DNA of 64,000 bases. It comes from an uncultured Eggerthellaceae bacterium (lineage in GTDB: Bacteria; Actinomycetota; Coriobacteriia; Coriobacteriales; Eggerthellaceae). The stretch is taken from the NCBI GenBank assembly GCA_949840905.1, contig CATKXW010000005.1:1-64000 (forward strand), written 5' to 3'. The notes below the pieces were generated by a model, which worked only from the letters and a program-made list of their open reading frames with translations, was not told the origin of the DNA and did no database searches. Made by a program: the position numbers and the translations under genes. Within the stretch, counting starts at the first letter, position 1; each line of letters begins with the position of its first letter. Shown piece by piece: positions 35,450-42,083 of this stretch.

Positions 35450-37048
35450 TTGAAACCCGTCGTCATCATCCCCACCTTCATCTCCGGGGTCAGCCGGGCG
35501 CGCAAGTCGTCCAGCGTGGTCACCACCTACGACCACACCACGAACATCCACGAAGCCGGCGAGCTCGACCGCTGTCTCGGTTCTCTTGAGAACGTGGAGG
35601 GCATGGGGCTCATCCTCGTCTTGCTGTGCGCCGATCAGAACGTGGAGGAGCAAGCTCAGGCTAAGGTGCAAGAAGTGGTGAACGCCCACCCCAGCCTGGA
35701 GGTGATCGTGATCGCTCAGCCCGAGCTTCAAGCGGTGCGCCAGCATCTGGAAGCGAAGGGCTGTCCGCCGTTGAAGCACGAGGTGGCGCTGCAGGGCTAT
35801 GGTGCCATCCGCAATCTCGGCCTTTTGCTGGCCAACGTGCTCGGGTTCGACGCGGTGGTGTTCCTCGATGACGATGAGCTGGTGGAAGACCCGGAGTTCC
35901 TCAAGAAGGCCATGTACGGTCTGGGCAAGCGCACGCGCAAGGGCTTCCCCATTCTGGCGAAATCGGGCTATTACCTCAACGACAAGGGCACCTATCTATC
36001 GGAGTGGGAAGACAAGTGGTACAACCGCTTCTGGCAGAAAGGCAGCGCCTTCAATGAGTGGATCCAGGCGGCCATGAAGCGGCCGCGGCTGTCACGGTCG
36101 AACCATGTGTGCGGCGGCATCATGAGCATCCACAAAGACGCGTTCCAGTCGATGCCCTTCGACGCGTGGATCCCTCGCGGCGAAGACCTCGACTATCTGC
36201 TCGACCTGCGTATGTACGGCTCGGATGTGTGGTTCGACAACCAGTGGGTGGTGCGTCATCTACCTCCCCATTCCATCGGCGAGGGCGACCGCTTCCGTCA
36301 GAACATCTTCCGGTGGCTCTACGAGTACACGAAGCTGGAATACAGTCGCGCGCTCATCGACCTGCATCCGGTGAAGCCCTCTTCGCTGGAGCCATACCCG
36401 GGACCGTTCTTGGAGCCGGGCCTGATGAATCGCATTCGCATCACGGCGCTGCTGCGCTCCTTCGCACGGCCCGATAAGCAGGCTTATCGGCGGGCGGCCA
36501 AGTCGGCGGCGAACGAGGCGCGCATCTACGCCACGCGGAACTGCTCGAAGTACTATGATTTCCAACAGGTGTGGTCGGATGTCATGGATCGTCTCGATTC
36601 CGATAGCGAGCTGGCCGGTCTGGTGCTGAACACCTATCTTGCGCGTATTGGTCTTGGTGCGGGCCAGCCGGTGGCTCGACCTGCGAGCGTGCAGCCTGCG
36701 GCGGCCGCATCGGCGGTCGCGCAGCCTCAGCCTGCGGGAGTCGCATCGGCGGTCGCGCAGCCCCAGCCGGTGGCTCGACCTGCGAACGTGCAGCCTGCGG
36801 TGGTCGCGCAGCCTCAGCCTGCGGCTGCTGCGCCGGTGGTCGAGGCGCGGCAGAGCGTGCCGGTAGCTTTTGGAGCTCCCGTCGCGTCTGAGGCGGTGTC
36901 AGCTGCATCTGCGGTTCCAGCGGTCGAGCTCGATCCTGAGGCAGCAGCAGCGGCTGTGGCCCAGCGCGCCATCGCGGCGGCGCTCGCCGAGCGCTCCTCC
37001 ATCGATCCCGGCCTCACCAGCGAGATCCGTCTGAACGTAGCGGAGTAG
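35450..37048 (+). CDS. Family 2-like glycosyltransferase with long Ala/Pro/Gln-rich tail
   Basis: 532 residues from a TTG start (35450). The catalytic domain spans about 1-340; the nucleotide-sugar/metal motif is AVVFLDDDELVEDPEF, with an acceptor-side RGEDLDYLLDLRMYG and an earlier GAIRNLGLLLA. The N-terminal VVIIPTFISGVSRARKSS matches the first strand of GT-A enzymes. Residues about 400-500 are degenerate repeats of the VARPASVQPA and AVAQPQPAG type, then an Ala-rich end. There is no transmembrane helix, so it is cytosolic or peripheral. The sugar and acceptor are unknown. A -10 box TAGAAT (35404-35409) lies 40 bp upstream. Confidence 0.75.
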   Translation: MKPVVIIPTFISGVSRARKSSSVVTTYDHTTNIHEAGELDRCLGSLENVEGMGLILVLLCADQNVEEQAQAKVQEVVNAHPSLEVIVIAQPELQAVRQHLEAKGCPPLKHEVALQGYGAIRNLGLLLANVLGFDAVVFLDDDELVEDPEFLKKAMYGLGKRTRKGFPILAKSGYYLNDKGTYLSEWEDKWYNRFWQKGSAFNEWIQAAMKRPRLSRSNHVCGGIMSIHKDAFQSMPFDAWIPRGEDLDYLLDLRMYGSDVWFDNQWVVRHLPPHSIGEGDRFRQNIFRWLYEYTKLEYSRALIDLHPVKPSSLEPYPGPFLEPGLMNRIRITALLRSFARPDKQAYRRAAKSAANEARIYATRNCSKYYDFQQVWSDVMDRLDSDSELAGLVLNTYLARIGLGAGQPVARPASVQPAAAASAVAQPQPAGVASAVAQPQPVARPANVQPAVVAQPQPAAAAPVVEARQSVPVAFGAPVASEAVSAASAVPAVELDPEAAAAAVAQRAIAAALAERSSIDPGLTSEIRLNVAE

Positions 37049-37886: not shown

Positions 37887-37904
37887 AGCTTCGCATCTAT
37901 CAGA

Positions 37905-37926
37905 TTATCCGACTACTGTCCGAATA
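37905..37926. promoter_or_regulatory. Operator-like dyad O1 upstream of engB
   Basis: TTATCCGACTACTGTCCGAATA, a degenerate version of the two dyads downstream, is written here in two halves only for position: TTATCCGACTA and CTGTCCGAATA. Confidence 0.5.
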
Positions 37927-37944
37927 GCTCCAAAATATCAAAGG

Positions 37945-37966
37945 TTATCCGATCACTGATCGAATA
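37945..37966. promoter_or_regulatory. Operator-like dyad O2 upstream of engB
   Basis: The halves TTATCCGATCA and CTGATCGAATA form an almost perfect dyad. It begins exactly 40 bp after O1. Confidence 0.55.
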
Positions 37967-37992
37967 GCTCATAGATATATGAAAATGTCTGG

Positions 37993-38021
37993 TTGATATT
38001 CGAAAAACGTTCCAATTCAAT
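37993..38021 (+). promoter_or_regulatory. Candidate engB promoter
   Basis: TTGATA (37993-37998), a 17-bp spacer and TTCAAT (38016-38021). The predicted start falls inside dyad O3, so binding there would repress. Confidence 0.45.
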
Positions 38022-38024
38022 AGG

Positions 38025-38046
38025 TTATTCGATCACTGATCGAATA
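38025..38046. promoter_or_regulatory. Operator-like dyad O3 upstream of engB
   Basis: TATTCGATCA and TGATCGAATA are perfect inverted copies around one central base. It begins exactly 80 bp after O2. Confidence 0.6.
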
Positions 38047-38068
38047 TAAAGAGAAGAGAGCGAAGGCG

Positions 38069-38647: not shown

Positions 38648-38904
38648 GCTCACCCTTCCACCCGAGAGGTTGAGCCCCATGCGAGATTCCCTGCTCGAAA
38701 ATGGGCTGATAGGTCCGCGAAATCTGTTCTTGAGAAGAAAAATATCTTGAAAAAAGTTCGAGGAATGGGCAAAAAGAGCCACGAGCGACCATATTTGAAA
38801 ACACAATATGTTGAATTAGCCTCTCAATATGGTGGGTTGATTTTCAATATGTTGTATCAACCTCTTCAGGTTGAGATGAGGTTGAAAAAATCAACCTCTA
38901 ACGC
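38648..38904 (+). promoter_or_regulatory. AT-rich regulatory region upstream of the SPKTG-protein gene
   Basis: CAATATG occurs three times (near 38805, 38825 and 38845). Two dyads of the type TCAACCT/AGGTTGA lie at 38857-38874 and 38878-38898, centred about 22 bp apart, just upstream of the -35 box. Additional GGTTGA half-sites lie at 38835. The arrangement is that of an activator or competing-repressor region. Confidence 0.5.
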
Positions 38905-38933
38905 TTGACCTGCCCATATGGGGTGCCTATAAT
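38905..38933 (+). promoter_or_regulatory. Strong promoter of the SPKTG-protein gene
   Basis: TTGACC (38905-38910), a 17-bp spacer and TATAAT (38928-38933). The start would be near 38940, about 50 nt before the ATG. Confidence 0.85.
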
Positions 38934-38988: not shown

Positions 38989-39654
38989 ATGCAGAAGAAG
39001 ATCGTTGCAGCTATCTGCGCAGCTCTGCTCGCGATGGCCATGCCGGTTGCCGCTTTCGCAACCAGCCTCACCCAGGACAGCGCCGCTGAGGTCAACGGCT
39101 CTGACGTCACCTATACCGTCAGCAAGCTCGCTGGCGCTAAGGCTGACCTGAAGAACCTCACCGTTTTCGCTAACAAGGACATGGTGAAGACCCTCGACGT
39201 GAACCCGACCTCCGAGAACGCTGTGTTCATCGGTGGCTCCAACGTCATCGCTGCTCAGTCCTTCGCTATCGATGCTAAGAACAAGGACGGCGTGAAGGTT
39301 GGCCTGATCCAGAAGGCTGGCAAGACTGGCGAGATCGCTGGTACCATCGAGTTCAACTGGGACAACCTGGTCTCCACCCTGCCGGCTACCATCGATGTCG
39401 ACAACCTGTACACCAGCATCTACGCTAAGCACTCTGGCGACAACAACGTTGAGCCGCTGAAGTCCAACGTTAAGGGTTACAGCGCTGGCTTCTCCATGGA
39501 CCGCTGCTCCATCGTGACCGCCATCCTCTCCAACGGCAAGGTCATCTACAACCCGGCCGTGGGCGTGACCGCTGATGGCGCCACCAACGCTGCTGACCTC
39601 GAGAAGGCTGCTGCTGACGGCACCAAGTCCCCGAAGACTGGTGACATCGCCTAA
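38989..39654 (+). CDS. Secreted surface protein ending in an SPKTG sortase motif, without anchor
   Basis: 221 residues. A signal peptide (MQKKIVAAICAALLAMAMP...AFA) is cleaved near residue 24. The mature part is beta-rich with no recognised domain. The protein ends GTKSPKTGDIA: SPKTG is a motif cut by class B sortases such as that of Clostridioides difficile, and a sortase B gene follows. However, the usual hydrophobic helix and basic tail after the motif are missing: the frame stops at once and a terminator follows. Codon use (GCT, AAG, AAC) and a near-consensus promoter and GAGGAAAGGA site suggest very high expression. Function unknown. Confidence 0.85.
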   Translation: MQKKIVAAICAALLAMAMPVAAFATSLTQDSAAEVNGSDVTYTVSKLAGAKADLKNLTVFANKDMVKTLDVNPTSENAVFIGGSNVIAAQSFAIDAKNKDGVKVGLIQKAGKTGEIAGTIEFNWDNLVSTLPATIDVDNLYTSIYAKHSGDNNVEPLKSNVKGYSAGFSMDRCSIVTAILSNGKVIYNPAVGVTADGATNAADLEKAAADGTKSPKTGDIA

Positions 39655-39680
39655 GTTATCTCTTACCAGATAGCTCAACA

Positions 39681-39712
39681 GAAGGACCCCTCTTCGGAGG
39701 GGTTCTTCTTTA
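39681..39712 (+). terminator. Intrinsic terminator after the SPKTG-protein gene
   Basis: A 13-bp stem (39681-39692 with 39697-39708) with a TTCG loop is followed by TTTAT. Confidence 0.9.
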
Positions 39713-39887
39713 TATGTGCCCTCCCTATGAGGGGTGCCTCCCTTTGCTCCAACGAACTGCCCGTATCCTCGAAATATGAAGATGCATGTGTCGCGAAGCC
39801 CCATATAGGGTAGAATAGCTGCTGTTGCATACACGATATGATGCGCAACGCATGAGAACCGAAAGTTCATTGGGAGGTAACACGCTC

Positions 39888-40922
39888 ATGGCACAGCACG
39901 ATGCGTCCGGAAAGCACAGCGCCGGCAATCATTCATCGGATAGGTCATCGCAAGAAACGAAGAAGATAGAAACGAACAAGTCTGCGGCGAGCGCTTCCTC
40001 TTCGGCTCCTACGGAGAAGATCAAGACGGCTTCGCCCGATCAGACCAAAGAGATGCCCCGGGCGGCGAAGACCGCGGCGAAGACCGCTGACAAGGGGGTC
40101 AAGGCTGCCGCTCCTGCAGCTGAGAAGAAGACAGTGAAGCCGGTCACCACCGGTGCTGCTGAGGCTGAAGCGGCCCAGCAGAAGAAGCGCACGGGCATCA
40201 TCGCTGCTATCGTCATCATCGTGGTGCTGATAGCGGCCGTCATCGGCTTCATGGCTATGAACAGCAACAAGCCGGCCGAGGTTCAGAACAACGACATGGA
40301 AGTGGTGGACGTCGAGAGCGAGCCGGTGGACAACCCCGTCGACTTTGCGGCTCTGCAGGCTCAGAATCCTGACGTATACGGCTTCATGAACATTCCGAAC
40401 ACCAACGTCGACCTGCCGATCCTGTTCAATGCCGAGAACGATAACTACTATCTTACTCACGACATCGACGGCAACTCCACCATCGTGGGCGCTATCTATA
40501 CTCAGAGCATGAACAAGCAGGACTTCACCGATCCGGTCACCGTCCTTTATGGTCATACGCTGCTGAATGGCACGATGTTCAGCGAGCTGCACAAGTTCGA
40601 GGACCCGGAGTTCTTCGAGCAGAACCCGTACTTCACCATCTATCTGCCGAACGAGATCCTCACCTACGAGGCCATGGCTGCTCTGGAGTACGACGACAAG
40701 CACATCATGAACACCTACGACTTCACCAACGAGACGGTGGTGCAGGAGTTCTTCGACTCCATGCAGCATCCTGAGGCTGCTAACAGCCTGGTGCGCGAAG
40801 GCGAGGAGCTGAAGGCCGACACCGACAAGATCGTGGTGCTGAGCACTTGCACCCAGCCGGCGAACGATGCTAAGCGCTTCCTGCTGGTGGGCAAGTTGAT
40901 GAGCCGTCAGCCCACCAAGTAA
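39888..40922 (+). CDS. srtB: Class B sortase
   Basis: 344 residues. A long Lys/Ala/Ser-rich cytoplasmic region (1-101) precedes one transmembrane helix (103-124) and the extracellular sortase domain (about 150-344). Catalytic residues are the His in VLYGHTLLNG, Cys321 in VLSTCTQP and Arg330 in KRFLLVG; GTMFSELHKFEDPEFF is typical of SrtB. It cleaves a surface protein at its sorting motif and links it to peptidoglycan; the neighbouring SPKTG protein is the obvious substrate. The ATG at 39888 has GGGAGGT 11 bases upstream. The cytoplasmic tail is unusually long. A -10 box TAGAAT is at 39811-39816. Confidence 0.93.
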   Translation: MAQHDASGKHSAGNHSSDRSSQETKKIETNKSAASASSSAPTEKIKTASPDQTKEMPRAAKTAAKTADKGVKAAAPAAEKKTVKPVTTGAAEAEAAQQKKRTGIIAAIVIIVVLIAAVIGFMAMNSNKPAEVQNNDMEVVDVESEPVDNPVDFAALQAQNPDVYGFMNIPNTNVDLPILFNAENDNYYLTHDIDGNSTIVGAIYTQSMNKQDFTDPVTVLYGHTLLNGTMFSELHKFEDPEFFEQNPYFTIYLPNEILTYEAMAALEYDDKHIMNTYDFTNETVVQEFFDSMQHPEAANSLVREGEELKADTDKIVVLSTCTQPANDAKRFLLVGKLMSRQPTK

Positions 40923-40991: not shown

Positions 40992-42083
40992 ATGTCAGAC
41001 GAGACCATAATGACTCAGGGTCAGCATGTGGCTGAGACAGGTGACGATGACGCTGCGAGCGCCAAGAAGAAGCGCAAGCGCTTCAAGCTGTGGCAGAAGA
41101 TCCTGATGATCGTGGCCATCGTGTTGGTGGTGCTGCTAGCTTCGGGCGGTATCGCTGCGGTGGCGATCATCAACACGGGCAAAAGCGAGCTCTTAGCGAG
41201 CAACGACAGTCCGTTCGCCTATCGCAAGCTGAAGCATGAGGGCCAGCGCTACGTATTCAACGAGAACATGGTGTCGGTAGTGCTCATCGGCAATGACCGC
41301 CTCGGCAACGCTCTTGAAGGAACGTTGGGTCAGGCCGATGCCGTGATGGTGGTCGCCTACGACACTGCGAGCGGCAAGTTGACGCTCATCAACGTGCCCC
41401 GCAACACCACCATGGAAACGCTGCTCACGTTCCCTGATGGCGAAAAACGCACCCAGAAGATGATGCTATCGGGCGTATACGGTATCGCCGAGGATGACGA
41501 GGGCGGTGCCGAGCAGGTGTGCAGAACGGTGAGCCAGCTGTTCGGGAACATTCCCCTTGAGAACTACTGTGTACTGAGCATGCTGTGCGTGGGTCCTTTA
41601 GCGGACGCCATGGGCGGCGTGACGCTCACAGCTATCGACAACGTGCCCATCGAGCATATCGTGAAGGGCGAGACCTATACGTTGAAGAGCTGGAAGGCGT
41701 TGCGTTACGTACAGTACCGCGATCCTACTATCATGTCGTCGCCAGCCGATCGTATGGCGCGTCAGCACCAGTTCGCCAAGGCCTTCGTCGAACAGACGAA
41801 AGAGGCAGCGAAGAAGGATCCCATGGTGTTGAAGAAGCTCTACGACGTCATCACCGATCCGCAGTACATGATCACCACGCTCGACATGCCCGAGGTCGCC
41901 TACCTGGCGACCAGCGTGCTTCAGCATGGTACGGCTGACCTGAACCTGGTGACCGTCCCTTATGACTCGGTCTACAGTGACGTTCTTGAGAGCACCGAGT
42001 ACTACCCCGACGAGAATGCCCTCACGCAGTTGCTCATAGACACCTATTATCTGCCTGCCCCTGAGGAGGCAGAGGGGGAGTGA
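40992..42083 (+). CDS. LytR-CpsA-Psr (LCP) family cell-wall ligase
   Basis: 363 residues: a lysine-rich cytoplasmic start, one transmembrane helix (about 37-59) and an extracellular LCP domain (about 95-240). Conserved LCP features are the aspartate of QADAVMVVAYD, INVPRNTTME with its arginine, and the Asp/Arg pair in the YVQYRDP and PADRMARQHQF region. These enzymes transfer undecaprenyl-linked glycopolymers to peptidoglycan or protein. It lies directly downstream of sortase B, completing a surface-assembly module. An AGGAGGT site precedes the ATG. Confidence 0.92.
   Translation: MSDETIMTQGQHVAETGDDDAASAKKKRKRFKLWQKILMIVAIVLVVLLASGGIAAVAIINTGKSELLASNDSPFAYRKLKHEGQRYVFNENMVSVVLIGNDRLGNALEGTLGQADAVMVVAYDTASGKLTLINVPRNTTMETLLTFPDGEKRTQKMMLSGVYGIAEDDEGGAEQVCRTVSQLFGNIPLENYCVLSMLCVGPLADAMGGVTLTAIDNVPIEHIVKGETYTLKSWKALRYVQYRDPTIMSSPADRMARQHQFAKAFVEQTKEAAKKDPMVLKKLYDVITDPQYMITTLDMPEVAYLATSVLQHGTADLNLVTVPYDSVYSDVLESTEYYPDENALTQLLIDTYYLPAPEEAEGE

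What the first reader, a model, noticed from the sequence alone, without database searches (positions are those of the whole stretch)
38989..40922. SPKTG sortase substrate with no membrane anchor beside sortase B
The highly expressed secreted protein ends GTKSPKTGDIA and stops; there is no hydrophobic helix or basic tail, and a terminator follows, so this is not a frameshift. SPKTG is a known class B sortase motif in Clostridioides difficile, and a sortase B gene is next door. A substrate without an anchor would have to be cut before leaving, or be used as a soluble partner in a different reaction.
Basis: partly seen in the sequence, partly recalled or inferred. Interest (0 to 1): 0.62.

Follow-up and report, generated by a model that had tools for sequence, protein, structure and literature searches.

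The report
Anchorless sortase substrate beside its sortase
A gut bacterium of the family Eggerthellaceae makes a secreted protein that ends right after the tag a sortase uses to attach proteins to the cell wall, without the membrane anchor such proteins normally need, and several related genera share this design, so the short ending looks selected rather than accidental.

Summary
The secreted protein at 38989-39654 ends SPKTGDIA*, a terminator follows 26 nt later, and no downstream frame encodes an anchor. A class B-type sortase (39888-40922) and an LCP glycopolymer transferase (40992-42083) follow. I read 57 SrtB loci in the order. In 44 the nearby SPxTG-type protein has a normal hydrophobic anchor; in 10 it stops 1-3 residues after SP[KQ]TG (DIA, DAL, DAL, GIL, IFA, F, F, F, C, LY); in 3 none was found. 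No other of 2764 open frames in these loci ends this way (0.015 expected). Nine tail-less loci fit one SrtB clade; the tenth is independent (AU p = 0.009). A precedent exists: streptococcal AbpA ends LPKTS-AVK*, sits beside srtB, and is shown to be wall-anchored by it and partly shed (PMC4974636). By analogy, this SrtB most likely cleaves the free C-terminus at T|G as the protein leaves the Sec channel and links part of it to the wall. Cleavage and linkage are inferred. This is a new variant of a known kind, apparently convergent with AbpA; the conserved LCP partner may help retain the protein.

The parts
38878..38898 (.). perfect inverted repeat GAGGTTGA-N5-TCAACCTC just upstream of the -35 box, candidate operator
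   Evidence: 0 mismatches, 0.02 expected in the window by chance
38905..38933 (+). sigma-70-like promoter TTGACC-17-TATAAT
   Evidence: 11 of 12 consensus positions
38989..39654 (+). secreted SrtB substrate, 221 aa: signal peptide, domain shared with SrtB-linked proteins of relatives, linker, SPKTG-DIA stop
   Evidence: homology to anchored and tail-less relatives by hhalign, probability 97.9%, E 5.5e-13
39628..39651 (+). C-terminal short sorting signal SPKTG-DIA
39680..39709 (+). intrinsic terminator
   Evidence: hairpin -20.2 kcal/mol
39888..40922 (+). class B-type sortase, 344 aa, one N-terminal membrane helix, catalytic His223, Cys321, Arg330
40992..42083 (+). LytR-CpsA-Psr (LCP) family glycopolymer transferase, conserved third gene of the module
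   Evidence: PF03816, E 1.1e-15; synteny

Best explanation
The locus is a substrate-SrtB-LCP module in which the substrate carries a shortened sorting signal: SPKTG plus three residues and no membrane anchor. The protein is exported by Sec and its signal peptide is removed. Its C-terminus leaves the channel last, next to membrane-bound SrtB, which cuts between T and G, expels GDIA and joins the protein to a wall nucleophile. Molecules that miss the enzyme are shed, so the protein exists in wall-linked and free forms. Shown here: the ending, its conservation, its strict link to particular SrtB genes, the intact catalytic residues, and the LCP partner. Inferred, by analogy with AbpA: cleavage, wall attachment and partial shedding. 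More speculative: that the LCP enzyme modifies the protein and so helps hold it at the membrane.
For: Ten SrtB-adjacent proteins in six genera stop 1-3 residues after SP[KQ]TG. All keep at least one residue after G, so the scissile T-G bond is internal. The motif codons differ by synonymous changes while the linkers before them are unalignable. No other frame of 2764 has such an end, 0.015 expected. Nine of the ten SrtBs fit one clade (bootstrap 83, AU not rejected), with T after the catalytic His and TxP after the catalytic Cys in 9 of 9; the tenth is separate (AU p = 0.009). Anchored and tail-less systems coexist in one genome, each with its own SrtB (G017, G023). Precedent: AbpA with LPKTS-AVK*, where deleting AVK or changing L or P abolishes function (PMC4974636).
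Against: No biochemistry was found for any Eggerthellaceae SrtB. In C. difficile, removing the whole sorting signal sends an SPKTG substrate to the supernatant, and the anchor is held to be required for membrane association that enables sorting (PMC5569036); a construct with SPKTG but no anchor was not among those read. The streptococcal system is not close by sequence: P0002 scores 74.8 bits against a cut-off of 200 for the AbpA-type SrtB model, and anchored relatives score as well as tail-less ones. One SrtB inside the tail-less clade (L178) has no substrate beside it.
Confidence: 0.7

Rival explanations
1. SrtB joins the free C-terminus to an amino group on another protein, or on copies of the same protein, making oligomers instead of (or before) wall linkage.
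For: AbpA forms an SrtB-dependent ladder on the wall and higher species in vitro (PMC4974636). The substrate here has 19 lysine codons.
Against: The own-genome searches made here showed no second tail-less or SP[KQ]TG partner protein. No pilin-type lysine motif was noticed by eye; this was not searched systematically.
Confidence: 0.2
2. Relic: the anchor was lost, SrtB no longer acts on the protein, and it is simply secreted.
For: Without its sorting signal an SPKTG protein of C. difficile went to the supernatant (PMC5569036).
Against: The motif stays intact in all ten tail-less proteins across deep SrtB divergence while linkers do not; SrtB keeps its catalytic residues; codon bias suggests strong expression.
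Confidence: 0.08
3. The LCP neighbour, not SrtB, holds the protein at the envelope, by adding a glycan as in Actinomyces oris GspA; SrtB acts second or on other proteins.
For: LCP follows SrtB in 49 of 57 loci of the order and is present in all 20 clostridial loci checked. In A. oris LcpA glycosylates the sortase substrate GspA, and glycopolymers are still seen when its sorting signal is removed (PMC6381275).
Against: LCP is equally common beside anchored substrates, and one tail-less locus (L184) lacks it.
Confidence: 0.12
4. Artefact: a frameshift or assembly error hides the anchor.
For: Draft genomes.
Against: No hydrophobic-plus-basic anchor stretch was seen in any frame after the stop in any of the ten, and terminator-like hairpins soon follow most of the stops; the same ending occurs in independent isolates and MAGs.
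Confidence: 0.01

Closest known systems
AbpA-SrtB of oral streptococci (PMC4974636)
   Same: Secreted substrate encoded beside a class B sortase; motif followed by three residues and a stop; no hydrophobic domain or charged tail.
   Different: Motif LPKTS-AVK against SPKTG-DIA; AbpA has a helical coiled coil and binds amylase, whereas the homologous domain of a relative here is predicted all-beta; the streptococcal SrtB model is not met. No LCP gene came up in the passages of that paper read here.
C. difficile SrtB with SPKTG/PPKTG substrates (PMC5569036)
   Same: Class B sortase and the SPKTG motif.
   Different: C. [quoted passage not shown]
Actinomyces oris GspA-LcpA-SrtA (PMC6381275)
   Same: LCP enzyme genetically linked to a sortase substrate in an actinobacterium.
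   Different: There the sortase is the housekeeping SrtA and GspA has a C-terminal membrane segment; here SrtB lies between the substrate and LCP genes and the substrate has no such segment.

Membership tests
Class B sortase (SrtB) | sortase domain, Pfam PF04203 | tested here: met
   36.9 bits, cut-off 26.6
Class B sortase (SrtB) | catalytic His, Cys, Arg | tested here: met
   H223, C321, R330 invariant across the nine aligned sortases
Class B sortase (SrtB) | NCBIfam TIGR03064 curated cut-off | tested here: inconclusive
   best family by far, 141.5 bits, but below the cut-off of 153.75; relatives of the order score 104-148; the solved relatives found are class B sortases or SrtB-like entries
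Canonical cell wall sorting signal | LPXTG-like motif near the C-terminus | tested here: met
   SPKTG
Canonical cell wall sorting signal | hydrophobic segment after the motif | tested here: not met
Canonical cell wall sorting signal | positively charged tail | tested here: not met
AbpA-type short sorting signal | motif plus about three residues at the very C-terminus, beside srtB | tested here: met
   PMC4974636
AbpA-type short sorting signal | LPKTxAVK sequence and its SrtB model NF040525 | tested here: not met
   SPKTGDIA; 74.8 bits against cut-off 200
AbpA-type short sorting signal | SrtB-dependent wall attachment | not testable with these tools
   needs fractionation and mass spectrometry
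GspA-LcpA type glycosylated sortase substrate | LCP gene linked to the substrate | tested here: met
GspA-LcpA type glycosylated sortase substrate | substrate carries an LCP-dependent glycan | not testable with these tools
   needs biochemistry

The most novel reading that the evidence does not exclude
A branch of class B sortases in Eggerthellaceae has become specialised for freely secreted substrates with a minimal C-terminal signal, independently of streptococcal AbpA, and the conserved LCP enzyme replaces the membrane anchor by holding or glycosylating the protein until SrtB captures it.
Probability: 0.25. Interest if true: 0.75.

Novelty: new variant of a known kind. Interest (0 to 1): 0.52.

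Why it matters
Textbook sorting requires a hydrophobic segment and basic tail to hold the substrate for sortase. AbpA was described as an exception found only in oral streptococci. A second, apparently independent set of SrtB systems with minimal signals, next to close relatives that still have the anchor, turns the exception into a recurrent design and gives natural pairs for testing what the anchor is for. It also warns that searches for sortase substrates that demand a membrane helix miss real candidates, here the likely main partner of SrtB.

Tried and rejected
Close homologues of the substrate by sequence: none in 60 relatives or in the 84,980-genome collection; orthologues had to be found through the neighbouring sortase. 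Fold search: the model of the window protein is poor (pLDDT 55); a relative gave a good all-beta domain (pLDDT about 90), but neither had a credible match in the PDB. Frameshift and assembly error rejected. Descent from the AbpA system is not supported by the AbpA-type SrtB model. Other anchored SP[KQ]TG proteins in the own genome as the real SrtB clients: none found; the anchored candidates there carry LAKTG, LIKTG, LAATG, LTATG or YPKTG motifs. The LPXTG_anchor profile scan was not discriminating: it rings in all 14 control genomes.

Full report
What is there. The window lies in a draft genome (G000, 1.98 Mb) of the same family as genomes whose contigs match Adlercreutzia records, that is Eggerthellaceae. 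At 38989-39654 a secreted protein of 221 residues ends GTKSPKTGDIA and stops. A terminator lies at 39680-39709 and a good promoter at 38905-38933, preceded by a perfect inverted repeat at 38878-38898. Its codon bias is the strongest of ten genes compared in the window. A sortase (39888-40922) and an LCP-family transferase (40992-42083) follow on the same strand.

Is it chance? The substrate has no close sequence relative in 60 related genomes or in the large genome collection. I therefore found orthologues through the sortase: relatives, family, order and the named genome collection, and read the neighbourhoods. In 57 SrtB loci of the order, 44 have an SPxTG-type protein nearby with a normal hydrophobic segment and basic tail; some of these, in Olsenella- and Collinsella-like relatives, have drifted to SPxTN, APATD and similar but keep the anchor. 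Ten have a protein that stops 1-3 residues after SP[KQ]TG: window DIA, L175 DAL, L192 DAL, L177 GIL, L184 IFA, L185 F, L186 F, L187 F, L188 C, L176 LY. In three none was found (L178; L224 at a contig end; L228). No other of 2764 open frames ends so, and shuffling predicts 0.015. The protein is homologous to the others over its length (hhalign E 5.5e-13), but the linker before the motif is not alignable, so the motif is what selection keeps. The motif codons vary synonymously between loci. No anchor is hidden in another frame.

History. On a maximum-likelihood tree of 66 sortases the tail-less label needs far fewer changes than shuffled labels. Nine tail-less SrtBs plus L178 group together (bootstrap 83, SH-aLRT 60, so weak), and an AU test does not reject the nine as a clade (p 0.456). 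Adding L176 is rejected (p 0.009), so there were at least two origins. The tail-less clade shares T after the catalytic His (41 of 53 others have N) and TxP after the catalytic Cys, in 9 of 9; this may be ancestry only, since L176 does not share it. Two genomes carry both kinds: G017 and G023 have one SrtB with an anchored partner and another with a tail-less partner. In G140 anchored SPxTG proteins and a tail-less one occur in the same genome. The window's same-genus genome G001 has engB followed directly by leuS with no such operon, while in G031 the tail-less pair lies between engB and leuS; so the position beside engB may be ancestral and the operon lost in G001, but this rests on three genomes.

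How it most likely works. The precedent is AbpA of oral streptococci: it ends LPKTS-AVK, lacks hydrophobic domain and charged tail, and lies beside srtB; SrtB cleaves T|S, anchors it to the wall, and forms a ladder, while monomer is shed (PMC4974636). In that work deleting AVK or changing L or P abolished the function, and its authors suggest the short tail weakens retention. The Eggerthellaceae proteins keep at least one residue after G, which leaves the T-G bond internal. I therefore infer that SrtB captures the C-terminus as it leaves the Sec channel. In C. difficile, whose SrtB also uses SPKTG, full removal of the signal releases the protein (PMC5569036), which fits partial shedding here. 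Cleavage, linkage and shedding are inferences.

The LCP gene. An LCP gene lies on the same strand downstream of SrtB in 49 of 57 loci of the order, and all 20 clostridial loci checked also contain one. In Actinomyces oris, LcpA glycosylates the sortase substrate GspA before anchoring (PMC6381275). LCP could modify or retain the substrate here; since it is as common beside anchored substrates, it is not specific to the tail-less state.

Known or new. P0002 falls below the AbpA-type SrtB cut-off (74.8 against 200 bits), and tail-less and anchored relatives score alike, so the resemblance to AbpA is one of design and apparently convergent. In eight literature searches I found no report of anchorless sortase substrates outside the streptococcal case; the library holds only open-licence papers, so this is not proof of novelty. 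Verdict: a new variant of a known kind, of moderate interest, directly testable.

Noticed in passing
window 38878-38898: Perfect inverted repeat GAGGTTGA-AAAAA-TCAACCTC directly upstream of the -35 box of the substrate gene; further CAATATG and ATCAACCTCT repeats lie at 38803-38908. Likely regulator sites.
   Followed up: partly
window 37902-38058: Three imperfect 37-nt direct repeats upstream of engB, two of them holding the palindrome TTCGATCA-N-TGATCGAA or a near copy.
   Followed up: partly
L055-L127 set and L173-L244: The substrate-SrtB-LCP triad spans Coriobacteriia and Clostridia including Ruminococcus bromii; no paper found describing it.
   Followed up: partly
L175, L177, L178, L188, L192, L106: Several of these sortases begin with a lipoprotein-like signal (LAGC, LGGC, LSGC) instead of a plain membrane helix, so they may be lipid-anchored.
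   Followed up: no
L209, L213-L215, L217, L219, L220, L232: Anchored SrtB partners whose motif has drifted to SPxTN, SPKTD, APATD or SPSTS, suggesting shifted sortase specificity.
   Followed up: no
L178 4822-5652: SrtB of the tail-less clade with YGHTF and STCTRP signatures but no substrate or LCP gene beside it; its client may lie elsewhere.
   Followed up: no
window 35450-37048: Family 2 glycosyltransferase with a long C-terminal run of Ala-Pro-Gln-Val repeats (QPQPAGVASAVAQ and similar).
   Followed up: no
L052 599-2731: Anchored SPQTG protein with InlB-type repeats directly upstream of a tail-less SPKTG protein at the same SrtB locus.
   Followed up: no
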